NCBI GenBank assembly: GCA_001599595.1
Contig: BCHH01000002.1
Location: 4,750,055 to 4,814,054 of the forward strand
Source: Beverwykella pulmonaria
Lineage: Eukaryota > Ascomycota > Dothideomycetes > Pleosporales > Melanommataceae
Length of the DNA stretch: 64,000 bases
Direction: 5' to 3'
Part shown: positions 12,832-46,383 of the stretch, one piece after another
Layout: each line of letters opens with the position of its first letter
How positions within the stretch are numbered: position 1 is the stretch's first letter
Notes under the pieces: model-generated
The model's input: the letters and a program-made list of their open reading frames with translations, nothing else
The model's database searches: none
What the model was told of the DNA's origin: nothing
Made by a program: the position numbers and the translations under genes

Positions 12832-12959
12832 GAATACCGTCAAATATGGGATCGAGAAGAGTTAAATCTAAGTCTACTCTAGTAGTTTAGAAGAAAATAT
12901 TCTAGCTTTAAAGGGCAAGTAATATGAGGCCATGAGCTATTAGGATATGAGGAGGAACG

Positions 12960-12977
12960 TTATCTCATTAATCAGAC
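12960..12977 (+). repeat. Left terminal inverted repeat of the 9.3-kb element
   Basis: TTATCTCATTAATCAGAC, an exact reverse complement of 22272-22289. Similarity continues imperfectly inward (CTC, then GCGGCGCTAA-like words). Confidence 0.92.
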
Positions 12978-13040
12978 GCTCCACAGAGGATTTTCCTAGC
13001 GCGGCGCTAAGGCTCGCTAAGGCTCGCCTTGAACTTCTGG

Positions 13041-13100
13041 GAACTCCTAGGCCAATCAGAGACCTAAGAAACTCCAGGGAACTCCAGGGCCAATCAGAGG
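13041..13100 (+). repeat. Subterminal CCAAT motifs, left end
   Basis: Two copies of the element's recurring motif, AACTCCTAGGCCAATCAGAG and a CTCCAGGGCCAATCAGAGG variant, read on the plus strand. The mirror-image pair lies at 22121-22199 near the right end. Confidence 0.75.
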
Positions 13101-13740
13101 CCGATTATGTAATCAATGGAAAATTCTCTGCGGAGCGTCTGAGGTAATTTGGTAGTCGTTTGTTAGCAACTCAGATTTGTCAATCGCAATATTTGACTTT
13201 GAGCCCACCTATGAGTTTGCCTGCGCCCTTAGTTATTTAAAGGCGCGATGCAAAAAATAGAACAGGTAATTCTGCGTTAATTGATGTCATTTTAATGCCT
13301 AACTAACGTCTGTATAACATGGAGATACACGGCGCCGTGTAGTGACTTGTTTTCGCAAGTCACGTTTTGTGGAATCACGACCAACAGTGACTCAATACAC
13401 CCCACCCACACCAAGATAATACACTGTAACCTGCTCCGCTAGGTTATACGCCTGTCCTAAAGCGCCTCCTGAGCTTACTCCGTTACATTTACACCTGTCG
13501 CCGCCGGATCGCACATCCTCAGTCCATCGCCTGCATATCCAGACCACGCGACAACCACGCACTACGTTGTCGCACAGCCTCCATCTAACCCCTATCACAC
13601 TCGCTGAGTTGGATATTGCGCCGTACTGTCCAGTGTTATTCCCTGCTTGTGTTGTTGGGTTAAAATCGCGTTACCAGATTCCTATCTTACAGAACCGTGT
13701 CTGCCCTCTTCAACTTTGTTATTAGCTAGACCTGCACTAC

Positions 13741-13819
13741 AAAACTCCTACAAACTCCTAGGCCAATTAGAGGCCACAGATATAAGCCCTAGAAACTCCT
13801 AGAAACTCCTGGGCCAATC
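13741..13819 (+). repeat. CCAAT motifs directly upstream of the helicase start
   Basis: Two further copies (AAACTCCTAGGCCAATTAGAG and AAACTCCTGGGCCAATCA); the second abuts the helicase start codon at 13820. The position suggests a promoter element or a binding site for an element-encoded protein. Confidence 0.7.
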
Positions 13820-16696
13820 ATGGCTCCTCAGAAGGGTAGACAAGGCGGCAGGTTGACGCGGCATGGCGCACGGCAGGCGCCCGCGCAAGCGGCGTGGAAT
13901 ACAACAACTGTGACGCCGACAAGGAGGAAAAGTGGGAAGACGAGTAGAGGTGATAAGCGTACTATCTGGCACCGGCGCCACCAAAATCTACGTGTACCTA
14001 GGCTAGAGGAGCGTCTCTTTATGGATTAGACATTGAGTGAGTGGGTTTGTAGTGTTCCACATATGAAAATGGAGGATCTTCCAATGGTTGTTGAGCGGGC
14101 CAGGGCGTTTGAATATGTGGACTTTCAAGAGGAGGTTATTGCGGTGTGTCTAACGCGGATACTGGCATGTGGCATGGCTGATGGTTCCCCTGCCTGCAGA
14201 CCCCGCCTAGAGCAGGTTTGAACGCTCCAGCGGCTTATATTTAGATGTGGTGATACGTTCTTAATCGCACGGACTGGGTTTGGGAAGAGTATTATCTTTC
14301 ATGCCTTTACTGTGTTAACTCAAAAGATTACGTTGCAGTTAATCCCACTTAACAAGCTAGGCGACAAACAGCTTTGCGACATCCGCAGTATACTAGGTAC
14401 TAATCCTTGTCTCCTAAATGCAAAGACTCGCACTGAAACAAAGGCCCTGTTGGGTAGTATTGCTGCTAGCAAGTACACTCATGTTCTGCTTAGGCCTGAG
14501 CAGGCGTTAAGTAGGTCCTTCTGTGCCGCATTAAAGAGCCCTAAGCTACAATCACAGATTAGACTAGTGGCTATTAATAAGTGTCATCTAGTCCAACAGT
14601 GGAAGGACTTCCGGCCTGCGTTTACACTCCTTGGTGAACTGCGTATGATATTGCGCTGGGACATTGTCTGGTTTGGCTGCTCAGCTACAGTTGACGAAGA
14701 GACTAAGTTAAGGGTGCTCAAGTCCACTAGATTTAGGCCACTTGGGTATGGTATGTACAAGACGGAGGTTATCTGGACATCAATTGATCGCCCAGATGTA
14801 TCAATTGCAGTCATCCCCATCCCAAAGGGGAAGATGTCAGACTAGGATCCATTGCACTTCCTTATTGACGGCGCGACGTTAGATGTAGACAGTGGTGTCC
14901 AGTCTGCAACTCTAGAGGGTGTGCCTAAGACTGTCGTCTTCATTGACGGTCGGATGAGCCTCCAGACTGCCGCAGATTGGTGTTGTCGCGTATTGGTTGC
15001 TAAGACAGCAGGTCTCCCAGCTCATAGTCGGTATACGTTGGATCCTTTGGATGGCGCGCGCTGCGTGCTTAATGTCGTGGAGGTCTTTACCTCGCATGTA
15101 TTGGACTTCGATCGACAACAGCGCTACGCCGAATTCAAGCTCCCATCATCCATGATCCGCGTCATGTTTGCAACCACGTCTCTTGGCATGGGCATCAATA
15201 TTCCTGACATCTAGCGCGTTGTGTGCTGGCGCTTCCCAATCACTATGAGCATCGCAGACATGTGGCAGCGCCTGGGTCGTGGTGGTAGATCAGCTGGTGC
15301 TAGAAGCTCCGCCTACATCTTTCTCCCGTATTAGATGTTCGACTCTGAAGGCTACTCAGCTGTTGAGGTTCAGGTAGCTACACTGCCAACCACGGCCTCA
15401 CCACTTTCCCGTCTAGCGCGGCGTATGAAAAATCAGCTGCCCAATCAATCGCGGCGTCTTAACAAGAGTCGGTTGGCGGAGAGTCACACGCCTGCCTCTA
15501 TGGTATGTGACATGACGCCAGGCGACACTGCTGCGGAGCCATCCACTCAGGAGCCTTTGGGTAGTCAAACTCCAATGGTAGATGGGAGCGAGGCTGAGAG
15601 TGTTGCCTCCAATGCCGACGCATGTGTGCGCACTCGCAGAGACTCACAAGGCCGCAAACCCTGGACTAAGTCAGATCAATCAGCCCGAGAGTTGGTAGAC
15701 GCGGTGTGGTTTAGGATGGTGAATGGGGTGTGCCATTGGGAGGAGTTCTTACGCTGCCTGGGAGAGTACAAACTGCCGCCTAGTGAACAAATGTCTGTTC
15801 CTAGAGATGAATGTTGCTCTCGCTGTAATCCATCACTCTTGCCGTTGCCGTCGGATCCGCCGCCAGCCATCAAACCACCATCCCGTCCGCGCAAGGGTAC
15901 GCTGCCGTACTTTGCCTTTGTGCACATTGAGGAGTGGGCCACTACCCAGGCGGCGTTGCTGTGTTCAAGTACATTTTGGAGATATCCAGTGCCAGCTGCT
16001 GCCTTTATAAGTACCAAGCTACAATATGCTCTAAGCGCCGCATGTAGATCTAAGATAGTTAGTGATACCATGCTGTTAATAGAACAATGGCTAGAGCTAG
16101 CACCGCAGCTCTCAGAGTGGTCGCGGATTGAGTCTCATGGCAGCGCGTTGGTGTCCGCAATGCCAGATATACTTGTGGCTGCTCGCTCTGAACATGATGC
16201 ATATAAACTTGCTATAGGTGCGAGTAGACAGGAGCGTCTGGTGGCGCATTTGTTAGACGGGCCCATAACTGCGCTGGGGGCAGACCGCGCAACTGTAATC
16301 AAGAATCGAGACAACCACTTGGCCAGGGAGGTTGCTAAAAGGAGGTTTGCCAATCTGGCCAGTACAATAATGTCGACCGCGGCTGCTGTAGCTGCTTCGC
16401 CTGACACTATCGTGGACCGTGTGATCTCTACTCCTGAGCGCGACGTCGACAGTCCAACAGCATTGCCAGTCACACCGTCCATGTCGATACCAGCAAGCAC
16501 GGCTACGCCTGTAAGGTTGAGTAAACGCCGTCGGTTTACTAGAGAGATTGCCAGTACACCACCTGCAACGCCATCTCAGGTGCCTTTGGCGCAGCTAGAC
16601 GCAAACGTAACAAGACCACTGTTGTTTGCTGCTACTACACGTACAGGTCAGGAACGGAAGCCAACTGAAAAAGCGCGTGGATACTTTAAGATATAG
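13820..16696 (+). pseudogene. RecQ-like DNA helicase of the 9.3-kb element, with five nonsense codons
   Basis: One uninterrupted frame of about 958 codons is broken only by five stops: TAG 14027, TGA 14219, TAG 14843, TAG 15212 and TAG 15332. Helicase motifs appear in order: Walker A TGFGKS (about residue 152), motif II at residues 252-256, motif III GCSAT (about 288), motif V MFATTSLGMGINIPD, and motif VI QRLGRGGR. After these come CHWEEFLRCLGEY and a DECCSRC cluster, which resemble the RecQ zinc-binding subdomain. Motif II reads INKCH where DEAH/DECH-like acids are expected; two G-to-A changes would explain the loss. The basic N-terminus and Ser/Thr/Pro-rich C-terminus are unassigned. RecQ-like helicases unwind DNA 3' to 5'; here the role would be in element replication or excision. 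This copy cannot be functional. Confidence 0.8.
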
Positions 16697-16769
16697 CAAA
16701 CTATACCGTACAATTGCATCTCCTTGCGTTATGCCGTATGCAAGATATTGTCTTAGGTATAATCTATAG

Positions 16770-16961
16770 CCTCCTATTGGCCTAGGAGTTTGCAGGAGTT
16801 TCTAGGAGGTTCTAGGAGTAGTTAGCGCGTGTCCAAGATGAAAGGAACTATCACTATTACTATTACCACCATCCTTCTGTCTTCATGCATTGCTATATAT
16901 GCTAAATCCCTAGCCTCTTATTGGCCTAGGAGTTTGCAGGAGTTTCTAGGAGGCTCTAGAA
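16770..16961 (-). repeat. Two inverted CCAAT motif blocks between helicase and Zn-cluster genes
   Basis: At 16770-16816 and 16911-16961 the motif recurs on the minus strand (ATTGGCCTAGGAGTTTGCAGG), within two larger direct copies of about 145 bp. They sit upstream of the gene at 17113. Confidence 0.75.
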
Positions 16962-17112
16962 GTAGTTAGCGCGAGTCCAAATAAAGGGAACCTACATCAC
17001 CATTACTATCACCACAACTCAGCGTCTACACTAGCGCTCCGCGTAATAGCCATATATAATAGTAAACTCCCTGCTTGTCTGCTCTGCATAGAAACACCAC
17101 AATACTGCAAAG

Positions 17113-18106
17113 ATGCCTTTGAATACTCTACCTGCAATCTTTGCTCTCCAGTACCAATCCAACGTCTGTCAGACGGAGGACGAGATCCTTGCTTCTGCCT
17201 GTACTATCCAATTCTATGCCTCACGGCATAGGGGTGTGACTTGGCCGTGCCTGCCTGTAAAGGTTTGGGTGCGCCAATGCGGTGCGCGGAGGGATAGGTT
17301 TCAAGTCATTGGACAGAGGCCAGCCAAGAAGGTCGAGCGTGGTCGTCAAGAGACACCTCGCGCGACCTTTAAAGTTGACTCATCTAATGATGAGGCATTT
17401 GGGGAGCCGCTTGTGCGCGTTCCTAGCTTAGATGCGTTCCCCCAAGAACCATCTGTAGACTTGGGTTGCAGCGGCAGCGTTAGTGACAAAGAGATGGATG
17501 GCCTGTCTTTCAACGACAATTAGCAAGTGTTGCTCTCTCCCTTACATCTACAAATGCTAACCTTTATACAGCAAGGACGCTACCACCCTGCCGTCTCCGC
17601 CTGCTGTCGTGGGCAACCCTTCGCGGGCAGTCTTTGCGAGAGCTCAGGTTGCACATGGTCCGGAAGATCGCGTGGCTTGGACTTGGGACCCTCAGGGCAA
17701 AAAGTCCAGTGACCACTACGTACACCAGCACTCCAACGTGTGGTCGTATCAGTCTGAATCGGAGTACCATGCCGCAAAGCCTAATAGGAAGAAGGTGTTT
17801 GACCATATTGGTCGCATCATGGAGACGGACCTTGGGGTGAAGCTGAGTAATGATCAGCGTTGCAGCCACTGTCAGGCTGGAAACGGTTCCAGCGGGTACG
17901 AGTGTTGGATATACAGCAGTGACGGAGCAAAGCAGGTGAAGAACCCGGGCTCTATCTGCGCGCGTTGTCGGATGGACACTGTCAAGTGCTCCCTCTCCAC
18001 ACGCAAGTCACAAGGAGTACCCGCGCCGCCTCGCTCATCTCCTGCGGTTCTCCTGCCTCGTCCAGCGGCGTCTGGTCCCTCGTCCAGAGTGGTTCCCAGA
18101 TGCTGA
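17113..18106 (+). CDS. Six-cysteine (zinc-cluster-like) protein of the 9.3-kb element
   Basis: Exons 17113-17522 and 17572-18106 are joined by a 49-nt GC-AG intron (GCAAGT donor, GCTAAC branch site, TACAG acceptor), giving 314 residues. The stop that would otherwise end exon 1 (TAG at 17521) spans the donor and vanishes on splicing. The C-terminal third carries C234-x2-C237-x10-C248-x17-C266-x2-C269-x6-C276, a likely zinc-binding module, preceded by VAWTWDPQGKK and a WSYQSESEY segment. No family is recognised. DNA binding at the repeated motifs is an inference from the cysteines and the genetic setting. Unlike both neighbours, this gene has no premature stop after splicing. Confidence 0.65.
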
Positions 18107-18644
18107 GTTGTTGATTCGCGGTCAGTACGTCGTCGAAGCTTGCGACCTTGAGACTTGTCACCTCTTGGAAGTTACACCATCTCAGCTACAACCCCTTCCT
18201 CTTTGCTTGGTTGTGGCTTTGAGCAATAGGGAGAGCATAAGTGTATGTTAGGGCTACAGCTCTTCTGTCTAACGTACTGGCTGGCGGAGAGTAGAGTGTT
18301 GTAGTTTAGAGTCTGTCAACGCAGCAAGTTCTAACCGTCATCATCAGGGTCTGGCGTTTGGGGTGGCTTAATCTGTGTAAAGTTTCTACCCTTCACCTTC
18401 TTTTGACGAAGACGCATGGTTACAGACGGCTCTATTAGCAAGCACCATGTAAGATCTGGTATAAGCTGCTCTATTGGTTGAGCCTAGATGGCCGGCGAAG
18501 ACGGAACCTGCTGCCTGTACGGGGCGCCGGCTACAAACCTGTCACTACTCTATCTAGTAGTTGGCAGAGCCGAAGCAGTACGCAAATTCCTTTCCACTAA
18601 CAGTAGCTTTTACAGTTACTGCTAAGGGAGAGTTATTGGTCTCA

Positions 18645-19047
18645 GGTTCAACATTTGTTCTGCACGGGACTTAGCCATGCTACAAACTCCTACAAACTCC
18701 TGGGCCAATAAGAGGCTATTGGTCTTAGGTTCAACATTTGTTCTGCACGGGACTCAGCCATGCTACAAACTCCTGCAAACTCCTGGGCCAGTAAGAGGCT
18801 ATTAGTCTTGGGTTCAACATTTGTTCTACGCGGGACTCAGCCATGCTACAAACTCCTGCAAACTCCTGGGCCAATAAGAGGCTATTAGTCTTAGGTTCAA
18901 CATTTGTTCTGCACGGGACTTGGCCATGCTACAAACTCCTGCAAACTCCTAGGCTAATAAGAGCCTATCAGTCTTAGGTTCAACATTTGTTCTACGCGGG
19001 ACTTGGCCATGCTACAAACTCCTGCAAACTCCTAGACCAATAAGAGG
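18645..19047 (+). repeat. Five tandem units of about 84 bp containing the CCAAT motif
   Basis: Five direct units start with GGTTCAACATTTGTTCT (near 18645, 18729, 18811, 18895 and 18978); each ends with an AAACTCCTGCAAACTCCT block followed by GGGCCAATAAGAGGC. The array lies between the 3' ends of the convergent second and third genes, so it is not a simple promoter and may be a binding-site cluster or internal control region. Confidence 0.85.
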
Positions 19048-19054
19048 CTAAGGA

Positions 19055-21923
19055 TTAGGTAAGATCTATAGTCTTAATAGAAACTGTGGGGTCGAGCATG
19101 CCATAGAGCTTATCTAATATAGCATCAGCGTAGTCCTAGATATCATCAAAACTAGTAAAGTCAGAGCTGTCTTGTGCAGCCAGAGGGTAGAACTGAATTT
19201 GGCCAGGGGTACAGACATGCTGTTGGTTGAACTGCGTAACCTTCTCCTCTAACAAAACAGTACCCTCTTTTCAGATGTCAAGTAAATCATACATCGCGTA
19301 GTTGCGTAGCTAGTCAGACTCACAAGGCTCTAAGAGGTCGTCATTAAGCAGTGTGCGGGCAAGAAGATACATGTCAGCCACTGCAATACTAGAAGTGTGC
19401 TTGTCTGACATGTCCTCTCCAAAGTAGCCCTCTAACTGTAAGCGCAGTAAGTGGAGCCAGGTGCTGCACAAACACTAGTGTTTAAATGTCTCCTTAGCGT
19501 TGTGGGTAGAGTTCTTGTTTATCTTAATATCAATCTTAGACGCAAGATTAAGATGCTCCATGTGAAGGTCAATTGGCTTAAAGGTAGACAGGAGCCCCTT
19601 CTAATTTACTAGCCCAGTTGCAAGTATACTCCTCTGTAGCTCAGGGGTGTTTACACTTGTTAGATTCCACCTATAAAATAACATCTCACGCCCATAATTA
19701 TGCTGTCCTGCACCAAAGAACAGCACAATAAGTAGATCTACAAGACGTTGCAGTAAACTAATGTTACTAAACTTGACAGCATGACGCACTGTTAAGAAGA
19801 TCTCAACTTCCTGGAGATACCTGCACATAGTACAGAACTTGACATCTGGTGTATTAGACACCCAAGCAGAATGTGTGAAGGCAACCTGTTGTACATCGCC
19901 TACAATATCCAGGAACTAGTCAGGTGTTAGGGACTAAACAAGCTCTGTGACGTCCTCCAACTGCTTAGTAGAGACAGTGAGCTGAGTTGACGCGCAGAAC
20001 AGGCCTTGGCGTCTTATTGCGGCGTAAAATAGACCAACAACGCGAGACGTAAAACCTTGCGCTACAATAGGCTCCATTAGGTGGTACTTTGCACTGTCTC
20101 GTGTGGTTTGACTGCGGCCCCACATAGTAACGTTGTGGAGTATAGTATGTTGGCTGCCAGGGCACGGCGGAGATGCGTCAAAGTGGGTGCGGACAATCGT
20201 AAACAAGAGATTCATCTGTATGTGAAACCACGCCGGAAGCCCAAGTAGCCAGTCCCGCTTGTCGTATAGTCAAGCTGCACGCACCTGCTCAGCCTTGGTA
20301 GTTCATATGTGATGAGCAGTAAGTTGGTCGCCATGTGCAAGAAATAAGCGCGCCTTAAAGTCGTTAGGCTTATCCAATGTTGGGTTATCTGGTGCCCAGA
20401 GACCAAGCTGCCGCAGATAAATATCATCCTGCACCTTATACGTCCCCTTAATAGTGCCCTTATTCTCAAATACAGCAGCATACTGCCAGAACTTGGTCGT
20501 CCAAGGTGTAAGGCACTCTATCGTCAGAAACACTGGGTATCTAGCTTTGTTGGATCTGGAGAAGACAGCATTGACGGCGACAGGATAGATTCAGCGGACA
20601 GCGTCAGAGATGAGACTATAGGTTATGTCGACGTCAATCTGACCTCCCACAAGGCCATCGCTGAATACTATGTCGTCTAAGCTGAGTGGCACAGTAGGAT
20701 TATGCATTAACTGCACTAATCTAGACGCCGGCATCTCCTCGTCTATACAGATTAACGCGTTTGTTATATCTAGCCGACCCTGCTTGTGCCCTGCGTCCTT
20801 GTGGCAAACAGCTGCCTTTGCGTTTAAATTATCCCATACGTTCTTTGTTTGTAGGTGGAAGGCAAGAGTGCGTAGATGTTTCTACTGTAGGTTAGCAACG
20901 TACAAATACTAATAGAAGAGAATGTAGAGATTACAATTAAGGACGTACTTCTGCCTCTGCAGAGAGCTTGCGCATAAGGCTGTTTGCGCTGTGGTATGTA
21001 TAACACAAGCCAAATCCAGCAAGCACCTCTATAACCTTACAGTGCGTACTNGTACCTAAAAGGTATAGATCAAGAGAAGACGCNAGAAAGTTTGACCTCA
21101 TCTTAGTCCTTNAATNGCACACTATACTAGTAACCGCAAACATCTTCTNGTGGAGCGCACTGTNGACATTCCTNGCCCNGTAACTCCTGTAGCCTGCACA
21201 AGGATTGCTNATAACATAACAGAGAAGCGCGTGCCATTTGGGGGCAACACGCTGTATAGACTCAATGCCAGCGCTAAAGTCAATACTCTCTGCATCCACA
21301 CGCTCATTAAACATCCCAAACAAAGGCTCTTTTTGCAACTAATCTAACTCGCCAGCACAGGCACGCATAATGTTTACGTCTGATATAACACCACAGGAGT
21401 AGAATAACTTAAATGTTTCTTCCAGAATCCGGCGCCGCAATTTCTGCCTGCTATAGCTCTTGTGACTGACGCGCACCTCCAGCTCATTATTGTCCCCAGC
21501 CCACGCCTCTAAGAATTCCTTAAACGTCCACTTTGTACGTCGCAGTGCATTAACTATAAGGTCTAATTTCACCTTAGAGGTGCGCGCCCGGCAAACGCGC
21601 GCACGGGAGCGCGCGTCCTAGGAAGGAGGGTGCAATATATTAGGCAGGACAGCGGTGTCGTCCCTCTTAGTGTTGTCCTCGTCAGCATCCAGTTTGTCCA
21701 TGGTGGCGAGAAGTGCTTTATTAGGCAGTGCAACGTCCCCAAAGGGATCGCTTAACTCAGAGTCACCGCTACTATCTTCTAGCACGCTAAGGGGACTTGA
21801 GGAAAGGTCAATGTCATCAAAAAATAATGGCGGAGGGCTTGTGAAGGGGCTTGCTGGTGTGGTAGATAAGGCTTGTTTGGGGCCGCCAGGGAGGTGAAGG
21901 AGGGCGGGAGATAGAGACATCAC
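19055..21923 (-). pseudogene. DUF6589-like large protein of the 9.3-kb element, 13 nonsense codons
   Basis: The frame runs 21923-20949, then after a 64-nt GTACGT...CTACAG intron 20884-19055, about 934 codons in all. Recognisable stretches are WTFKEFLEAWAG, APKWHALLCY, LDLYLLG, VIEVLAGFGLCYTYHSAN, FWQYAAVFENKGTIKG, HGDQLTAHH, WFHIQMNLLFTIVRTH and AKYHLMEPI. This order matches my memory of the fungal DUF6589 family, whose function is unknown. At least thirteen in-frame stops occur, all TAG or TGA, with the frame otherwise preserved. Several ambiguous N bases lie at 21051-21199. The HGDQLTAHH motif and size would suit a catalytic protein such as a transposase; that is inference. Confidence 0.65.
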
Positions 21924-22120
21924 AAATTGAACAGATAGTATTAAATAATCGCTATCGTTTAGTGCTAATTTTGCGTGGTTAAATGCTGTTTTAGTGTTGG
22001 AGATAGAGGGTGTAAGTGTGTATGTTTCCCCTTCAGTGTAGAATCAGAGTTGCTAACAAGCCACTACCAAATTACCTCAGACCCTCGTGGAGAATCTGGC
22101 TCCGGTCCCATCCCTGCGCT

Positions 22121-22199
22121 CTTATTGGCCTAGGAGTTTGCAGGAGTTTCTTGGGTTTATTCTAGACCTGTGATTGGCTGAGGAGTTTGGAGGAGTTCT
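22121..22199 (-). repeat. Subterminal CCAAT motifs, right end
   Basis: Two minus-strand copies (TATTGGCCTAGGAGTTTGC and GATTGGCTGAGGAGTTTGG) mirror the pair at 13041-13100, followed by a GCGGCGCGCTAGCGGCGCTAA zone resembling the left end. Confidence 0.75.
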
Positions 22200-22271
22200 T
22201 AGCGGCGCGCTAGCGGCGCTAAGAAGGGTGCTGCAGGGGTGGCAGACCGGAAGTCAGGATTCTCCGCGAGG

Positions 22272-22289
22272 GTCTGATTAATGAGATAA
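22272..22289 (-). repeat. Right terminal inverted repeat of the 9.3-kb element
   Basis: GTCTGATTAATGAGATAA, exact inverse of 12960-12977, followed directly by the target duplication GAGGAACG. Confidence 0.92.
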
Positions 22290-22324
22290 GAGGAACGAGC
22301 GAAATGTGGTTCGAAAGAACAAAA

Positions 22325-22537
22325 TGTCACGTATGTCACGTGTTCTCTTATGTCACGTGTCTCACGTGTTCTATCATATGTCACGTGTCTCACATGACAT
22401 ACATATGTCCTATTCTAGCTAGTTCACCCTTCATGGGTATGTATAGTCGTCATGCGAGCAGTCAGCTCTTCACGGCTTTCTCACTCTTTACACACACTTT
22501 ACCTTCAGACAGTTGACTTCCGCCTCTACTCGTGACA
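22325..22537 (+). mobile_element. Solo LTR-like element with CACGTG repeats
   Basis: The 213-bp unit starts TGTCACGTATG and ends ACTCGTGACA (TG...CA, with TGTCACG/CGTGACA inverted ends). It is flanked by CAAAA on both sides (22320-22324 and 22538-22542). Its 5' part repeats TGTCACGTG and TCTCACGTG several times. A diverged inverted relative lies at 25890-26050. No internal coding part exists nearby. Confidence 0.7.
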
Positions 22538-23150
22538 CAAAAACGTATGGAGCGAGGCGGAGATTGCGAAGGATGAGATTACTGCTCCGTCCTCCAACTT
22601 TGAGATGGATTGGTTGAACAAGGCCTACTTCCTTGAATTGTCCTCGTGACCTGTTGCTAAATAGGAGAGAGTTAGTTTGGTCACATATTGGGCGTAATGG
22701 TACAGCTCTATTCGGGTTTAGTTGCTGGGTGCTTGCGTTTATGTTTGGAGATGCCTCGCAGACTGGGGTAAGCACTTTACCTGTCTGGAGCTAGCTCCAG
22801 AGCTGATAAGAGCTGGGCGCATGTGATCAACAGAGGCTGTATAGGCTGGTGGACAACATCTAATGAGTGCTTTTGAGGTAATTACTGCACGGGCGCATTG
22901 GCATCGGCATGTAAGATTTTCGCGAATCTCTTCAAAGTCTTATTTAACCATTAAGAGTCCCGAATTGTGACATAACTACCGCTAATTGGAATCTGGTGCA
23001 GGGATGTCGCTCGACCCGCATGGGCAAAAGTCTACAGGATTCCGGCTCAACTATCCTTCAATTGTGGCGTCCCGAAGCGAATTTCTTTCACTTCCTGTCA
23101 ACAACCTCATCTTTAGAATTTCGCCCTCGTTATCTTCTAGCTGTGACGCA

Positions 23151-24884
23151 ATGCAATATTTTGTGCTACTCATTTTCGTATGGGCTTGGCCCACTATCGG
23201 GAGAGAGATGTCTGAGCATAAAGTTCTTCTACACCAGCCGAAAGTCACGCTTCTTGGAGGGTCCACGCTCAGCGGAGTGGTTGACCACAGCTATTCTTCT
23301 GTCCGGCAGTTCTTGGGAGTCCCGTACGCCCAGCCTCCTATTGGAGAGCTGCGCTGGGAGGCACCGCGAGCGAATCATTGGCCTTCGTCAGTAGATGCAA
23401 CTGCTTATGGAAGATCTTGCACGCAATTCCTAGGCACTGCAGCGAACGTGTTCACAAGAGACGTTCTTGAGTTCAACATTGGAAATATTAACACAACAGG
23501 AGAGGATTGCCTAACGCTGAGTGTCTGGACTCCTCAACATGCGGAAAACCTGCCAGTTATAATCTTCTTCTATGGCGGAGGCTGGTACACTGGCGGACAG
23601 GACACAACATATCAGATGCCTACACAGTGGGTGCAGCGGACAAAGGATTTAATTGTAGTTGTACCAAAGTATGTTGGCTCCAATGGTTTGAGTGAAAAAT
23701 TCTAAAGCGGAGATAGCTTTCGCGGGAACATCTTTGGTTTCCCGAATGCACGAGGAGTGAAAGATCAAAATCTAGGTCTTCTAGATCAACGGCTTGCGTA
23801 AGAATGTGTTCTGTATAAATTTGAAAACCTATAGACTAAACAACATAACAGTGTCGAATGGGTTAGGGATAATATCAACGCCTTCGGCGGAGACCCTCGT
23901 AAAATCACCATCTGGGGTCAATCTTCCGGTGCGGAATCTGTCGATATGTACAACTATGCTTGGTACAAAGATCCGATAGTGAAAGGCTTGATCATGGATT
24001 CCGGCACGGCTTTCATTGAAGATGGTTCAGGTCCCAAGTACACAAACTTCTCATATGTGGCGAGTCAGGTGGGCTGCGGCAACACTAGCAGCGCACAAGA
24101 AGAACTCGCATGTATGAAGAAAGTTGATGCAGCCACACTTGAGGATTTTATAGCCGAAAACTACAACGAGGGATCGATACCAAGCCTTGCGTTTGGTCCT
24201 TCGGCAGATGAGAAGGTCGTATTTTCCAATTACACCGATAGAGTGCGACAGGGCAAGCTCACTAATGTGGTGAGTAAAACTCTGATTGATGGAACATAAG
24301 ACAAGAAATTGGACTGAGCGAGCTATAAGCCGGCTATTATAGGTATCAACAAAGAAGATGGCAATGTGTTTGCGCCGTACAACGCCAGTGGGCCGGACCA
24401 GACTATTTCTAAGTTATGGTTCCTCCAGCTGTTCTTGTGCACCTCGTACAAAACTGCAAAGTAAGTTTATTGAACTTGTCTATAGTGCTTTAGTTCTATA
24501 CCTGGTCCAAATGTTAGCGGCCCTAACTAGTGATGCAGACTACGAGCAGCCGCAGGTCTCCCAACTTATCGATATCTATATGCGGGCAACTTTAGCAACA
24601 TATCGCCGAGGCCATGGATGGGTGCTTATCATCAATCTGAGCTGCCACTGCTGTTTGGAACTCATAGCAATCATCGGGAGCTGTCGACAAAGTACGAGAT
24701 TGCTGTGAGCAAAGTAATGCAAGATGCGTGGCGATCGTTCGCAAACAATCCCCAAAACGGTCTAGCGGGACAGCACTGGCCCCAGTTCACTCCCCACCGC
24801 GACGTTGTGAGAATATTCGGTGGCAATGGAACAGTTGCATTGAATGGGGTTGATGACCTGAAGATATACGAGGACCAGTGTTGA
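23151..24884 (+). CDS. Secreted type-B carboxylesterase
   Basis: Five exons (23151-23668, 23717-23797, 23852-24269, 24330-24460, 24539-24884) with introns of 48, 54, 60 and 78 nt give 497 residues without a break. MQYFVLLIFVWAWPTIG is a signal peptide. Family marks appear in order: FLGVPYAQPPIGELRW, EDCLTLSVWTP, oxyanion-hole FFYGGGWYTGG, VVVPNFRGNIFGFPN (formed across intron 1), VEWVRDNINAFGGDP (across intron 2), nucleophile GQSSGAES, INKEDGN acid region, and GAYHQSELPLLFG with the catalytic His. The nucleophile elbow is GQSSG rather than the usual GESAG. It hydrolyses esters outside the cell; the substrate is unknown. Unspliced frames look broken, but every splice restores the expected motif. 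Confidence 0.82.
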
Positions 24885-25889
24885 TCGCTCTTCGACAACG
24901 CTAGCTGTGGATGATCCCGGGCCTCGTACTAAGCAGCAAAGAATGCCCTGCGTTTCGTAAAAAAACCGCATCTCGGTCGAACCTAGCCAGCAGAAACTTG
25001 TTGTCATTATCAGTTAACAAAAGCCCTTGTGGAGTCAAGTAAGAGAGCCATGATATGCAGGCTTTGAGTTGCGGATAAGCGACAGTCGATTGTAGGCTGC
25101 TTCACAACATGATAGTGCAAGGCTGACAGTGTTCGACTTCGTCAAAACCTGCAGGGTAAGTTAGACCACTCGTTTGGAGCATCTCGCATACTCAGTTACA
25201 TTGCAATGTCTGGTTGGTGAACATGGAAGATGCATAACCGTGTGATGCAGAAAAACTTGAGATACGTCTTTGGCTTGCCATCCACTTTTCTGGATATAAT
25301 TTACTCGCTTATGGCGGGGCGCAGTGGCTATTTTCTAAGTAATACGCATAATATTTAGTAATTCAATTCGTTAGCTACTATGTAAGTACACATGTAAGTA
25401 GTTTAAGGCACGCAAGATCTTGGAGAGCAAGTCTAAATATGCATAGTTAGTGTCGATGCGTTAGTTGGAGAAAGTCGGGTAGGGTGTAAAATGAGAAACG
25501 CGAACCTACGTAAGGTATCACGGTATATCACGTGTATATCACGTGCACCACATGATCTTGGATATCACGTGTACTGTGCGCTTAGTCACATGTCCCGATT
25601 AGTCATGGCTGGATATATATACTCGTCGATTTCCATAGCTTCTAAATCAACTCAGTCCCTGATTTATCTCGTCCATATTACGTGACCGCGCACTCCGATA
25701 TAAGGTTATAGAAGAATTGTAAGGTATCACTTGTTAGTTATCAAGTTAGTAAAAGTGCAACTAGGCAGTCTTCGCGGGCTCACATCGAAGCATCCCCACC
25801 TAAACGCCAGTATGCTTACTCAACTCTTTGACGGCCCGGTTCGCAGTTTTGATTTTGAGAAGTATCACAAAAGGCAATAGCGGCGATGT
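24885..25889. other. Intergenic, CACGTG-rich patch at 25515-25600
   Basis: No gene found. Around 25515-25600 several TATCACGTG words recur (ATATCACGTGTATATCACGTG), loosely like the LTR-like repeats at 22325 and 25890, perhaps a third relic without clear ends. Confidence 0.35.
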
Positions 25890-40158: not shown

Positions 40159-41070
40159 TCAGGTCCAAGCATCTTCCAGCACCTTCAATGGAACATGGAA
40201 AAAGCGATATCCCTGCTCAGTAACTGCAGGCAACTGTCCCGCACGGATATTGAACTGCAGCGCCTGGTGTAAGAGCCTTGGTTCTCCCAATGTCGCATCA
40301 CGCTGCGTCCTCCACTGCACGAACTCTTCCATTCTCACTCCGTTATGCACATGTTTATTCTTTTCGCACTGCTCTGAGACAGTGGCGAAGGCGCGAGGAT
40401 CCGTACGGCCCTCGTCTTGATTGGGTGGGTAGTCGTGCCCGGAGTAGAGGCGAAACTCTGCTGGTAGCGAGAGCAACTTGCGCATGGACTTGAACAGCGC
40501 GGTTGCGTTGCCGCCGGGGAAATCGCACCTGGCAGAACCGACGTCGGGCAGAAATATGGAGTCGCCGGTGAAGACGTTGGAACCAATGACGTACCCAACA
40601 TGGTCGGGCGTATGGCCTGGAAGATGGAGCACTTCGATCTCAAGGCTGCCAAGTGACAAACGCTCGCCGTCATCGAGTAATTTGTCGAAGGCACCAACGT
40701 ACTCAGCTTCTTTAATGTCGTACTTTCTTGCGAACGTATGCTGGACTTGTTCGATGCGTTTGCCGATACAGATCTTGGGTTTGAGGGCCCCAATGCGGAG
40801 AAGGGTTCGCTGGATGTATTTGGAGGCGGTGAGGTGATCGGCGTGGGCGTGGGTTTCGAGGATGAAAATGATCTTGTAGTTGTGGGCCTTCACAAGGTTG
40901 AGAAGATTATCGGCCGAAGATGTTGTGATTGTACTGGTCGAAATGGCAAAGTCGAGAACACTGTCGATTATTACAGCATTCTTGGTCGCAGGATCCGCGA
41001 CGATGTACTGCCACGTACCGGTGTTGGGTTCGAAGATAGTGTGGATTTCTGGTTGGCAAGATGCTAACAT
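40159..41070 (-). CDS. Persulfide-dioxygenase-like metallo-beta-lactamase fold enzyme
   Basis: A single exon of 303 residues. Metal ligands fit the ETHE1/Blh group: T73-HAHADH-79 motif, His153 in LPGHTPDHVGY, Asp170 in FTGDSIF and His212 in YSGHDY; GSARCDFPGG also suits the sulfur dioxygenase branch rather than glyoxalase II. Such enzymes oxidise glutathione persulfide to sulfite with one mononuclear iron. No mitochondrial presequence is evident, so location is unclear. It is divergent from a YeeE/YedE transporter at 41652, a pairing that also occurs in bacterial sulfide-detoxification operons, which supports the assignment. Confidence 0.82.
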   Translation of the reverse strand: MLASCQPEIHTIFEPNTGTWQYIVADPATKNAVIIDSVLDFAISTSTITTSSADNLLNLVKAHNYKIIFILETHAHADHLTASKYIQRTLLRIGALKPKICIGKRIEQVQHTFARKYDIKEAEYVGAFDKLLDDGERLSLGSLEIEVLHLPGHTPDHVGYVIGSNVFTGDSIFLPDVGSARCDFPGGNATALFKSMRKLLSLPAEFRLYSGHDYPPNQDEGRTDPRAFATVSEQCEKNKHVHNGVRMEEFVQWRTQRDATLGEPRLLHQALQFNIRAGQLPAVTEQGYRFFHVPLKVLEDAWT

Positions 41071-41651
41071 GATGATGAGTTTTTTCTGAAAACTGGACTG
41101 GCAATATCGACGCTATGTGTGGGGGTGCAGCGGATATGTGAGCACGATGCAGAGACTGCATCCGAGATTTCGAACCCATCTTATCCTATCCAACTCTTAG
41201 CTATAACCCTCACGGAGAATGAAATGATTATAAAATCATGCTTTGTAATAACTAGGGAGACGGCGAGGGATAGATCATGGAGGCGATGTGCGTGTATCAG
41301 GTGACCGTCGGGGAAGTTCTAGTTCGCTCGGCGACCACAATTCTAAAAACAAACTGGCACGGACATCGAGTGACCGATCCAGTGATGCGCATCTCCCATG
41401 TTCAATTTCCGTCAGTCGCCTAGCAGGCATGTCATGGCAGGCGATGATGCACGGTATATATTCGTTGCCATGTTTGAAATATGGTGGTCTGCTCAAATAT
41501 TTCAATCACACTTGAATTCATCCAAAACTTCTACTTTCAAAGTGGCAATTCAAATCTTCTACCAAATTCAACTCACTTTTACCCTGCGAAATATTAGGTA
41601 TACTCAACACTCTCCTGTTGGTACAGCGGTCCTTTACATCACCCTCTCCCA
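41071..41651. promoter_or_regulatory. Divergent promoter of the persulfide dioxygenase and YeeE/YedE genes
   Basis: 581 bp separate the two start codons. It includes a palindrome GATGCGCATC at 41384-41393, which loosely resembles sites of Cys3/MetR-type sulfur regulators but does not match the usual ATGRYRYCAT consensus. Co-regulation is inferred from layout only. Confidence 0.4.
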
Positions 41652-42731
41652 ATGACAGCAATGGGTCTCGTAAAAACAACCGTGTCGGGCGCGGCCTTTG
41701 GGGCTGCTCTTACGGCATCTGGGGTGTGGAACCCGTCCTTCATCGTCGACCAAATGCGATTAGACGACTTCCACTTGCTAAAGGTCTTCATGACAGCGGG
41801 CGGTGTAAGCGCGTACGTTTCTCTCCATACACGAAAGTGGTTGAACACTCCCTGATCATTGGCATTTTCCAGACTCGCTATTCACCTCCTCTGGCGCTCT
41901 GGCTACGTACCTAAGAAGCCTCGTAATCCGTCCTTGCTCTTCACTGGGATTCCATACGATGGAAACATCATTGGAGGAACGATGCTCGGTGTTGGCATGA
42001 CGCTCACAGGAGCCTGCCCCGGCACGGTCCTCGTTCAGGTTGCCACACAAACATATCCTGGAATATATTCCTTCGCCGGGGGAATCATTGGAGGTACCCT
42101 CTACTTTCCTCTACAGCGATATTTGAAGCGTAGTGGAAGCTGCGTAGAGTCCAAGGACGAGAGCCTCTGGCTCTACACGAAGTACCACATCAACCCGGAT
42201 CTAGCGGTTGCGGCGTGGGTAGCAATGTACGCCTCCATAGTCAGCATGGCGACAGTACTTGCTCCTCCTACCGAGAAAAACTCTTTCCTTCCTCCAATCA
42301 TCGGCGGATTTTTCGTCGGGGCAGCTCAACTAGCATCCCTGATTCTACGTGGAGCACCTGTCGGCATATCGACGGCATACGAGGATGTTGGAGCCAAGGT
42401 TTGCGGGCTATTCCAACGGCGGAACAAGGAAGGGAAGTGTGTCAAGACTTTCACCCCAGCGGTGGCTTTCGCGGCTGGTGTAATGTTGGGGGCCGCTGCC
42501 CTGGTCAGAGTGGTGCCGAAGCTCGCTTTGGTAGGAACGGCGACGGGCCTGGGGATATCCCCCGCAAGAGCTGTTCTTGGAGGCGTGGTGATGGTCTTTG
42601 GGGCAAGGCTGGCGGGTGGATGTACTTCAGGACATGGCATTAGTGGGATGAGCATGCTTGCGACTTCAAGTGTTGTAACGGTAGCGAGCATTTTCGCCGG
42701 TGGAATCGGTCTTGCTCGACTGCTGTGGTGA
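41652..42731 (+). CDS. YeeE/YedE-family sulfur (thiosulfate-type) transporter
   Basis: Exons 41652-41812 and 41873-42731 (60-nt GTACGT...TTCCAG intron) give 339 residues, nearly all membrane-embedded. The two pseudo-repeats each carry the family's Cys-containing loops: TGACPGTVLVQV in the first half and GARLAGGCTSGHGISG in the second; GGTMLGVGMTLTG and GGTLYFPLQRY also fit. Bacterial members take up thiosulfate or related sulfur species. The gene is divergent from the persulfide dioxygenase and about 1 kb upstream of sulfate permease on the same strand. Fungal copies are often regarded as bacterial in origin; here that is not tested. Confidence 0.82.
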
Positions 42732-43715
42732 CGGCTGATTTCTATCTTTCAGGGCTCGTAGTTTTAGGCAGTTCCAACATTTCAGTCTGAATAATAATAC
42801 CTAATCAGGGCGGCTCCATGTTTCTGCAGAGGCGCTCTGTGTCAACGATGTTGACGAGCGAGATGTTTGCTCAGCGCTCGATCAATCATGTGCTTAAAGG
42901 TGTTGATGACGTAGTTCTTCACCCTTGTCTGCAGGCGAACCTGCGCCTTTAAACAGGAATTCTTCATTCACTGGTCACCCGAGTTATTTCTTCGAGCATT
43001 CAAATTTCATATTTTCCAGAGACTAATAAACTTTATCCGCTTGTGGTCCTTGTATTTGTCAAGCTCCATGGTCTAGTTTGGTGATCGCCTGAGCACAACG
43101 CGGAATCCTTGCCTCTCGCCTACCACCCATCCCATCCTCGGCGATCACCTCAGGACTCCTTGCAGGGGACTTGGCGATCAAGAAAGGGCTTTATTTCGGC
43201 GAGGTCGTACTTCCGAAGGCCTGGGATATCTCCGAGGGCCCACCCGTCGACTGCGGGGCACGTTTTGACGGCTTGTCGCCGACTTGGACGAATACCAGAT
43301 CGTATCGGCTAACTGGTTTGTCAAGAATCGAGGGCGCGAGGTGATATGCGGTTCTTCCCGTTCGCAGCCTTCTCGCTCGCCGATTGCTTGTCCGAGATGA
43401 CATCGCAATCAGGTGATCGCGCCGGCCATCATGTGACCTCTCACCTCCAGCTTTCGCTACTTCAGCAACCCGGACGAGGCGTTGCCCTTGCTGACAAATG
43501 CCCAGTGCTATAGACATATCTAGGTATCCTTCTCTTTGCGAGCCGGGTCTTCCGACCCCGAGTGCCCATGTTCAACCAACGTCGGCGAGGTGGGGACCAT
43601 CGAGTTAGCCCCCGGCTCGCCAGCACGAACATACAACACTACATCATGAGTCGCCCACTTGTATTGTTATCTCGAGAAAAGCATACGCTCTGGGTATCCA
43701 ACTGTTGCCACGACA
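42732..43715. other. Intergenic; GC-richer upstream region of the sulfate permease
   Basis: No gene recognised. From about 43080 the sequence is more GC-rich than its surroundings and has overlapping open frames on both strands without motifs; it probably contains promoter and leader of the gene at 43716. Confidence 0.4.
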
Positions 43716-46383
43716 ATGAGCGCCAATAAACTTACAACCATTGTAGCAAACAAAGTCTTCCACGCCAATTCCCAGCAACGACCCCAAGCCGAGCAAAAGG
43801 CTCTTGAAAATCTCGCCAAAGATGCTGTTGTCACTCCTTACATTGAGGAAGAACCTACGGTAGGGGAGTGGATATGGAGCTTGAAACCCACAGGACGGGG
43901 CAGCGTCCAGTATTTTCGCAGCCTTTTTCCGTTCACGTCATGGATCACCCGTTACAACGTGCATTGGATGCTAGGTGATGCTATTGCCGGTGAGTCTGGC
44001 TTTCCTAAGTTCTTTGTCCATATTCTGTGTGGCCTGCTGAAGTCTGACTATTCACAGGGCTGACTGTTGGATTTGTCGTTGTTCCACAGGCAATGGCTTA
44101 CGCCCTCCTTGCTAATCTGAGTCCAGAGTATGGATTATATACTTCCTTCGTGGGCGCAGCTTTGTATTGGCTCTTCGGAACGTCGAAGGACATTGTCATA
44201 GGGGCAAGTCACCCCCTTTCAACTACCGACAGCTTTCTGATGCTTAACTAGACAACGGCAGTTGGTTCTCTCCTGGTTGGTGGTGTCATCAATACAGTCG
44301 ACGCCAAAAGGCCAGGCATCTACACCCGCGAAGAAATTGCAAAAGGTCTCTCGTTACTGTCAGGTCTCGTTCTCATCTTCCTTGGACTCTTCCGCCTAGG
44401 ATGGCTCATCGAATTAATCCCATACGTTCCCATCTCCGCTTTCGTAACATCAGCTAGTTTCACCATCATCGGCACACAGCTCCCAGTCGTGCTAGGTATC
44501 AAGGGAATCAAAACCAGGGAAGCACCGTACAAGGTCTACATCAGTGTCCTGAAAGGACTGGGGCGGACGCAGCTCGATGCCGTAATCGGATTGACTTCGA
44601 TTGTTCTTCTTTACATTTTGAGGGACGTTTTTGCAAAATTAGAAGTCAGGCAGCCCGGAAGAAGGAGATTTTGGGCTACTCTGAGCTCACTAAGATTAAC
44701 ATTTACCATTCTCCTGTACACCTTTATTAGTTGGCTCATTCATCGGGGACTACCGCACGGAGAGCATAGGTTCCGACTCGTTGGACATATCGAATCGGGT
44801 ATGTATCTCTCGCGAGTAGAACAGTACCGTAGATCATTTCCATCATTCGCTAACATCTGGCTGGTAGGATTCGAGCATGCTGGCGTCCCCAAAATTACCA
44901 GTGAGCTCTTTAGCCTCGTCGTCCCGTCTATCCCCGCAATCGTCATCATCCTTATCATCGAGCACATCGCCATTGCAAAGTCCTTCGGCCGGCAGTTCGG
45001 CTACACGGTAAATTCGTCTCAAGAAATCCTCGCTCAAGGCGCATCCAACGCATTGGGAACATTTGTGGGAGGTTACGCCTGCACTGGCTCTTTTGGTGCA
45101 TCTGCTGTCCTCACAAAGGCCGGTGTTCGGACCCCACTCGCAGGTCTCTTCAGTGCTATGATCTTACTTCTCGCATTGTACGCGCTGACTGCAGTATTCT
45201 ACTATATCCCTATGGCAGCCCTAGCGGGCTTGATCATTCACGCTGTTGCAAATTTGATGACGCCACCAAGTGCTCTGTACAAGTATTGGAGATTAGCTCC
45301 GTTAGAGTTATTGATATGGGTAATTGGTGTTACGGTAGCACTGTTTGTGAGTCTTGAGATGTCGATATACACAACGGTTGCACTTTCCTTCGCTTTATTG
45401 TTGATACGAATGGCAAGGTCTCAGGGGGGCTTTATGGGGCAGGTAAAGGTCCGTCGTGTCGTACACGCCACGACTAAAGATGAGACAAGCTCCCGAGCTT
45501 CTAACGCTGAATTTCGCGAGGAAGAGACAGAGCGAGAAAGGGAGGTATACATGCCGTTGGAGAAGAAAGCGATTTCGAACCCTAGGATCGACGTAGTGGC
45601 TCCGTATCCTGGTATCTTCATTTACCGGTTCAATGAAGCTTTCAACTACGTCAACAAAGCTCAACATATGGACTATCTGTTATCATACGTTATGACACAT
45701 ACGAGGCGGACTCGCTCGGATGATGGTGTACAGGTCAAGGCAAGTTGCATCACACCCCTCCTCTTCTCTTGACATGCTCATATTGCCCTCAGGATCGACT
45801 CTGGTCCGACCCACTCCCTACACCTCACTCTCCGAATTCCACGATAGCCCCGCTTCCAATTCTCCGTGCCATAATTCTCGACTGTTCTACTATAAACAAT
45901 CTTGACATTACCAGTATCCAGGGCCTAATCGATGTACGCAACACATTAGACAAGTATGCTGCGCCCATGACTGTAGAATGGCATTTTGCAGGACTCCAAA
46001 ATCGGTGGACACGACGATCACTCGCGGTCGCCGGTTTCGGCTATCCCGTTGGAACGGCCTCCGATTTGGCTGGGAACTGGTGTCCGGCGTACTCCGTGGC
46101 GAGTTCTTTGGCCGGGGCAACGGAGGAAGATAGGAGGGCTGCGGGAGTGAGGGGAAGGGAGGTAGAGAGAAGAGATGAGGAGAAGGAGAGGGAGAGCCAA
46201 GGGAGTGTTGGTGAGACAGAGGGAATAAATGAGAGGAAAACAGGGTTGCAACCGGTGAATGGAGTTGACAGACCTTTCTTTCATATTGATCTTGTGGATG
46301 CAGTAGACACAGCAGTGAGGGATGCGATTAAGAGGGATGAGTTGGTAGGTCCAGATCGGTGTGTAAATGGAGCCCCCACCTGA
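43716..46383 (+). CDS. Sulfate permease, SulP family with STAS domain
   Basis: Five exons (43716-43989, 44058-44203, 44252-44798, 44868-45733, 45793-46383) encode 807 residues; intron 2 is GC-AG (GCAAGT donor). SulP signatures: LTVGFVVVPQAMAYALLA, SPEYGLYTSFVG, VGHIESGFEHAGVPK (rejoined across intron 3), LIIEHIAIAKSFGRQFGY, SSQEILAQGASNALGTFVGG, FGASAVLTKAGVRTPLAGL. The C-terminal STAS domain starts near VVAPYPGIFIYRFNEAFNYVN and includes AIILDCSTINNLDITSIQGL. A charged linker (residues rich in Glu/Arg) separates pore and STAS. It imports sulfate at the plasma membrane. An upstream in-frame Met at 43659 is possible. It closes the sulfur cluster. Confidence 0.85.

What the first reader, a model, noticed from the sequence alone, without database searches (positions are those of the whole stretch)
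12960..22289. Possible undescribed class of large fungal DNA transposon with RecQ-like helicase and DUF6589-like protein
Seen directly: 18-bp perfect inverted ends, identical 8-bp flanks, and three genes enclosed (RecQ-like helicase with a RecQ-type zinc segment, a six-Cys protein, and a 934-codon opposite-strand protein resembling DUF6589). No known transposase or recombinase was found. Known families with 8-bp duplications (hAT, KDZ) use other enzymes, so the DUF6589-like protein is the best candidate transposase. I know of no described superfamily with this gene set, but I could not search.
Basis: partly seen in the sequence, partly recalled or inferred. Interest (0 to 1): 0.92.

Follow-up and report, generated by a model that had tools for sequence, protein, structure and literature searches.

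The report
Fungal transposon with DUF6589 transposase, RecQ-helicase
This is a genuine but mutation-silenced fungal 'jumping gene' of 9.3 kb whose cut-and-paste enzyme appears to be a protein family so far filed as 'unknown function', travelling with its own DNA-unwinding enzyme; it most resembles the already described Academ type of fungal transposon but leaves a different-sized footprint.

Summary
Window 12960-22289 is a 9,330-bp DNA transposon with perfect 18-bp inverted ends and an 8-bp target duplication. The genome holds a second full-length copy (same length, no indels) and four 883-bp non-autonomous copies; all six have exact ends and exact 8-bp duplications. Both full copies are RIP-mutated (411 of 419 differences are transitions) and carry premature stops in the RecQ-type helicase and DUF6589 genes.

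The opposite-strand protein is DUF6589 (PF20231, E 2.6e-52). Two predicted models show an RNase-H-like fold with an all-helical insertion; best matches are Hermes (hAT) and P-element transposases. A conserved D-D-E set sits at the expected places. So DUF6589 is very probably the DDE transposase. Its helicase belongs to a distinct RecQ clade, and seven public contigs appear to carry both genes.

'Undescribed class' is not shown. Fungal Academ transposons are reported with PF00270/recQ_fam helicase domains, and AcademH is a published helicase-bearing lineage. But AcademH makes 9-10-bp duplications, here 8 bp, and I had no Academ transposase sequence to test homology. Verdict: new variant of a known kind.

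The parts
12960..22289 (.). DNA transposon, 9,330 bp, RIP-mutated copy
   Evidence: 18-bp perfect TIRs and 8-bp TSD; second copy of identical length, 95.5% identical, no indels
12952..12959 (+). left 8-bp target site duplication GAGGAACG
22290..22297 (+). right 8-bp target site duplication GAGGAACG
12960..12977 (+). left terminal inverted repeat, 18 bp
   Evidence: 27 genome-wide matches at up to 2 mismatches vs 0 in the reversed control
22272..22289 (-). right terminal inverted repeat, 18 bp
13139..13157 (+). left subterminal block CTGAGGTAATTTGGTAGTC; possible transposase-binding site (inferred)
   Evidence: 23 genome matches at up to 3 mismatches, 3 in the reversed control; found in inverted orientation near both ends of the 883-bp copies too
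22062..22080 (-). right subterminal block (1 mismatch to the left one)
13820..16696 (+). RecQ-type SF2 helicase gene, 958 codons plus stop, 5 premature stops in this copy
17113..17523 (+). 136-codon ORF, no family; possibly a 5' exon of the next ORF (not resolved)
   Evidence: six stops in this frame in copy 2
17609..18106 (+). six-Cys small protein; frame without internal stops in both copies; weak, sub-threshold match to DUF3716 (E 0.084)
18634..19050 (.). five 83-bp tandem repeats, each with the CTCCTRGGCCAAT-type motif that also recurs near both ends
19055..20884 (-). DUF6589 transposase exon 2 (608 codons plus stop): RNase-H-like core; predicted D18, D186, E443
   Evidence: PF20231 E 2.6e-52
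20885..20948 (-). predicted 64-nt intron GTACGT...GCTAACCTACAG
   Evidence: sequence; both flanking exons align to continuous relatives
20949..21920 (-). DUF6589 gene exon 1 (324 codons), N-terminal part, no Pfam match
   Evidence: 32% identity over 207 aa to P0059 and 29% over 228 aa to P0058; no Pfam family at E up to 1

Best explanation
The segment is one copy of a two-enzyme, probably cut-and-paste, DNA transposon family. Shown: both ends, 8-bp target duplications, several dispersed copies, small derivatives with the same ends, RIP damage. Predicted from structure and conservation: the DUF6589 protein is the transposase. It has an RNase-H-like core with an all-helical insertion and a D-D-E triad (exon-2 residues 18, 186 and 443), so it should cut the ends and join them across an 8-bp stagger, as hAT and P-element transposases do. 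Inferred: it recognises the 18-bp ends plus the conserved subterminal blocks; the RecQ-type helicase unwinds DNA at excised ends or during gap repair; the six-Cys protein is an accessory DNA- or protein-binding factor. The family is most likely a lineage of, or close to, the helicase-bearing Academ (AcademH) transposons, with an 8-bp instead of a 9-10-bp duplication. RIP damaged the helicase and transposase genes in both full copies.
Confidence: 0.78

Rival explanations
1. A distinct, unnamed superfamily: DUF6589 transposases are not Academ transposases, and this RecQ-plus-DUF6589 element with 8-bp duplications is its own class.
For: 8-bp duplications in 6 of 6 copies against 9-10 bp reported for AcademH; no C/DxxH signature; no paper in the held library contains the word DUF6589, and the only PF20231 hit is an optics paper.
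Against: Fungal Academ elements are reported with the same kind of helicase domains, PF00270 and recQ_fam, and AcademH is reported from ascomycetes, basidiomycetes and mucoromycetes. Duplication length varies inside the Academ superfamily itself (3-4 vs 9-10 bp).
Confidence: 0.22
2. A hAT, P or KDZ/Zisupton-type element (8-bp-duplication superfamilies, recalled) that captured a RecQ gene.
For: Best structural matches are Hermes (hAT) and P element; 8-bp duplication; H-x(3)-N-L after the second Asp resembles a hAT C-x-x-H-x-x-x-N-L pattern (recalled).
Against: No hAT, P or KDZ Pfam family matched up to E 1; C/DxxH absent in 60 of 60; the RecQ partner appears to recur on 7 other contigs, so it is not a one-off capture.
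Confidence: 0.05
3. KolobokH, the fungal Kolobok lineage with a RecQ helicase.
For: RecQ helicase and fungal distribution (PMC9587614, passage).
Against: Kolobok duplicates TTAA (recalled); here six different 8-bp duplications. The helicase is described downstream of the transposase domain; here the two genes are convergent on opposite strands. C/DxxH is absent.
Confidence: 0.02
4. A composite: a host or subtelomeric RecQ gene and a DUF6589 gene trapped between ends mobilised by an unrelated transposase.
For: RecQ genes are common subtelomeric repeats, and a RecQ repeat with an inserted DDE transposon is reported in Colletotrichum higginsianum (PMC5576322, passage).
Against: Second copy has identical gene order, length and ends; DUF6589 and RecQ-family hits share contig lengths in 7 cases, 0 for the 35 other RecQ hits; DUF6589 itself has a transposase fold.
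Confidence: 0.03

Closest known systems
AcademH (helicase-bearing Academ transposons, Kojima 2020; paper not held, known here from citing papers)
   Same: DNA transposon with a helicase of PF00270/PF00271 type, fungal distribution, recQ_fam domain reported in fungal Academ copies (passages)
   Different: 8-bp not 9-10-bp duplications; transposase homology untested; helicase and transposase are separate convergent genes here (AcademH gene layout not seen)
KolobokH
   Same: fungal DDD/E transposon with RecQ helicase (passage)
   Different: TTAA duplications (recalled) and C/DxxH signature; neither is met here
hAT (Hermes) and P element
   Same: RNase-H-like fold with all-helical insertion, 8-bp duplication (recalled for both); best structural matches
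   Different: no sequence match, no C/DxxH, no hAT, P or THAP Pfam family matched; not known to carry RecQ (recalled)
Subtelomeric/telomere-linked RecQ helicases of fungi
   Same: RecQ-type helicase repeated in fungal genomes (PMC4522978, PMC5576322, passages)
   Different: here inside a TIR element with its own transposase, at an interior position on a 5.1-Mb contig

Membership tests
DDE DNA transposon (generic) | terminal inverted repeats and fixed-length target duplication at different sites | tested here: met
   18-bp TIRs and exact 8-bp TSDs in 6 of 6 copies with two exact ends
DDE DNA transposon (generic) | transposase with RNase-H-like fold and D-D-E | tested here: met
   fold by prediction only; conserved acidic residues. 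Catalysis not tested
AcademH | helicase encoded by the element | tested here: met
   PF00270, PF00271, recQ_fam
AcademH | 9 or 10 bp target site duplications (as stated in PMC10045372) | tested here: not met
   8 bp in 6 of 6
AcademH | transposase homologous to Academ transposases | not testable with these tools
   no Academ sequence and not the defining paper held
KolobokH | TTAA target duplications (recalled) | tested here: not met
   six different 8-bp duplications, none TTAA
KolobokH | C/DxxH signature between second D and E (PMC9587614) | tested here: not met
   0 of 60 at the conserved H221; no other C/DxxH column with 20 or more rows between positions 190 and 439
hAT | 8-bp target duplication (recalled) | tested here: met
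hAT | C/DxxH signature (PMC9587614) | tested here: not met
   0 of 60; also no hAT Pfam family at E up to 1
KDZ/Zisupton | KDZ transposase Pfam family | tested here: inconclusive
   not matched at E up to 1, but distant homology not excluded
DUF6589 (PF20231) | match above the Pfam gathering score | tested here: met
   178.4 bits against 27

The most novel reading that the evidence does not exclude
DUF6589 defines a DDE transposase superfamily of its own, separate from Academ, hAT and P, with 8-bp duplications, no C/DxxH signature and a standing partnership with a dedicated RecQ-clade helicase; in fungi its genes are annotated as hypothetical proteins and as host-like RecQ helicases.
Probability: 0.22. 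Interest if true: 0.75.

Novelty: new variant of a known kind. Interest (0 to 1): 0.5.

Why it matters
It gives a fungal 'unknown function' family a concrete, testable role as a DDE transposase, with named candidate catalytic residues, and it ties a distinct RecQ clade to transposition rather than host repair, which affects genome annotation. If DUF6589 proves to be the Academ transposase, the Pfam and Repbase names can be merged and an 8-bp lineage added; if not, it is a new superfamily. Uninterrupted natural relatives exist for both enzymes, so the role of a transposon-borne RecQ helicase in excision or gap repair can be assayed directly.

Tried and rejected
Recoding of TAG (internal stops are mostly TAG: 13 TAG, 5 TGA, 0 TAA in the helicase and both DUF6589 exons of the window copy): rejected, because copy 2 differs almost only by transitions at CpA/CpG, the mark of RIP, and has TAA and TGA stops too. 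Whole-element RIP indices were not decisive: TpA/ApT 1.18 in the element against 0.87-1.01 in the flanks, (CpA+TpG)/(ApC+GpT) 1.14 against 1.12-1.19.

Looking for relatives in IMG/VR and in GTDB prokaryotes: none. DUF6589 in the 14 control genomes: 0. BFVD viral fold library: no credible match. PDB by sequence profile: 0. VIA-align listed no KDZ or Academ entry; this is an absence, not a test.

A deletion derivative at C7 (L049; 76-80% identical to internal parts of the element) has a good right end, but no left end was found. C1 (L047) showed no clean right end.

The weaker RecQ matches on C21, C16, C4, C2 and C10 were not assigned. Splicing of the 17113-17523 ORF to the six-Cys ORF was not settled.

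Paper searches behind 'DUF6589 not in print': (the InterPro number used is recalled); searches for RecQ-bearing fungal transposons. All in the held library only.

Full report
Observation. The stretch 12960-22289 has perfect 18-bp inverted ends and an 8-bp duplication GAGGAACG. The window lies at C2:4750055-4814054 of an unnamed 45.6-Mb, 31-contig genome; that the host is a fungus is inferred from RIP, the intron and the named relatives. The end sequence has 27 matches at up to 2 mismatches in that genome, 15 of them exact, against none for the pattern read backwards. Twelve of the 15 exact ends pair up into six elements: two of 9,330 bp and four of 883 bp. All six have exact 8-bp duplications, each a different sequence. 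Two further pairs with imperfect ends (C8, 683 bp; C17) match at 6 and 7 of 8 flank positions, read by eye. Three of the four 883-bp copies differ by 2-3 bases and the fourth by 16-17, so the family moved fairly recently.

State of the copies. The two 9,330-bp copies align without any gap at 95.5% identity; 411 of 419 differences are transitions. Of 410 C-to-T-type changes classified by context, 290 are at CpA and 116 at CpG. This is the pattern of repeat-induced point mutation. The window copy has 5 internal stops in the helicase frame and 13 in the two DUF6589 exons; copy 2 has 8 and 15. The helicase's motif II is altered in both copies, while 37 of the 40 close relatives show DECH by a plain text match that counts truncated proteins as misses. 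Two DUF6589 loci were found in the assembly, both damaged.

The opposite-strand gene. It matches PF20231 (DUF6589) at E 2.6e-52 in its second exon. The first exon aligns to the N-terminal parts of continuous relatives (29-32% identity), across a 64-nt intron with a GTACGT donor and a GCTAAC branch-like site. A protein search found 76 relatives among the 7,995 candidates scored (a capped list), all PF20231; the five with organism names are Setomelanomma, Coniosporium, Clathrospora, Cadophora and Histoplasma, ascomycetes by general knowledge. I aligned 59 of the 76 with the window and left out 17, most of them fragments. In these 60 sequences D186, E443 and a set of neighbours are invariant; D18 is invariant in the 22 rows that reach it.

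The helicase. It is a RecQ-type SF2 helicase. Of 75 hits among the 7,993 candidates scored (a capped list), 40 form a tight family (E at most 1.7e-64), and 35 other RecQ-like helicases start only at E 1.2e-10. In the precomputed Pfam column none of the 40 has the RQC, HRDC or RecQ zinc-binding domain that many of the 35 have.

The partnership. Seven DUF6589 hits and seven RecQ-family hits have longest contigs of exactly equal length from the same source: 5,571, 7,050, 7,439, 8,380, 12,598, 611,236 and 778,892 bases. None of the 35 other RecQ hits matches. As background, 13 pairs differ by 1-20 bases, over 40 possible offsets. Five of the seven contigs are under 13 kb, so the genes would be close neighbours. 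The other 69 DUF6589 hits have no equal-length partner, many on contigs too short for two genes, and the two Histoplasma hits are on contigs of different length. Between the seven pairs, DUF6589 and RecQ identities correlate (Spearman 0.62, 21 comparisons that are not independent). The six-Cys protein has four relatives among 41 candidates, three of them 72-77% identical and one 41%, too few to say whether it belongs to the core set.

How it most likely works. The transposase is taken to bind the 18-bp ends and the subterminal block, which recurs in inverted orientation near both ends of full and 883-bp copies (23 genome matches at up to 3 mismatches against 3 in the reversed control). It would then cut and rejoin DNA with an 8-bp stagger. 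The helicase would assist strand separation or repair of the gap. Binding, cutting and helicase role are inferred; ends, duplications, copies and RIP are shown.

Comparison. AcademH is the nearest published system. A survey reports that most fungal Academ copies contain recognisable protein domains, such as PF00270 and recQ_fam, and are often annotated as host genes (PMC6416283, passage). AcademH is listed as low-copy in Basidiomycota, Ascomycota and Mucoromycota (PMC10799480, passage) and makes 9 or 10 bp duplications (PMC10045372, passage). The defining paper (Kojima 2020) was not held and I saw nothing of it beyond its title in reference lists. Because a stated AcademH feature was tested and not met, I do not file this element as AcademH; I say it works like one. 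KolobokH (PMC9587614, passage) fails on duplication and signature. The library has no paper that uses the name DUF6589, and PF20231 gave only an unrelated optics paper; this does not exclude papers outside that library or under other names.

Verdict. New variant of a known kind, with about a one-in-five chance of being a separate superfamily.

Noticed in passing
window 40159-45772: Neighbouring sulfur-related genes: a metallo-beta-lactamase-fold protein (PF00753), a Sulf_transp protein (PF04143) and a sulfate permease (PF00916), looking like a small sulfur cluster.
   Followed up: no
window 22986-24299: Carboxylesterase (PF00135) in at least two pieces just right of the element; intron or break not resolved.
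   Followed up: no
window 22324-22409 and 25516-25545: Short tandem arrays containing CACGTG just outside the right end of the element and 3 kb further on.
   Followed up: no
window 18634-19050, also 13044-13825, 16769-16932, 22117-22185: A CTCCTRGGCCAATNAGAGGC-type motif occurs 13 times (up to 4 mismatches) in the window, all inside the element, five of them in an 83-bp tandem array; possible regulatory or transposase-binding repeats.
   Followed up: partly
L049 (C7:1632914 region): A related but 76-80% identical internally deleted derivative with a good right end, pointing to an older sister family.
   Followed up: partly
G000:C3:2092888 and C3:2108371: A left end (2 mismatches) and an inverted subterminal block (1 mismatch) 15.5 kb apart; could be a larger element or a nested insertion.
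   Followed up: no
L013, L014 (C21, C16): RecQ fragments 49-51% identical to the element's helicase, with stops, and no DUF6589 match found on those contigs.
   Followed up: no
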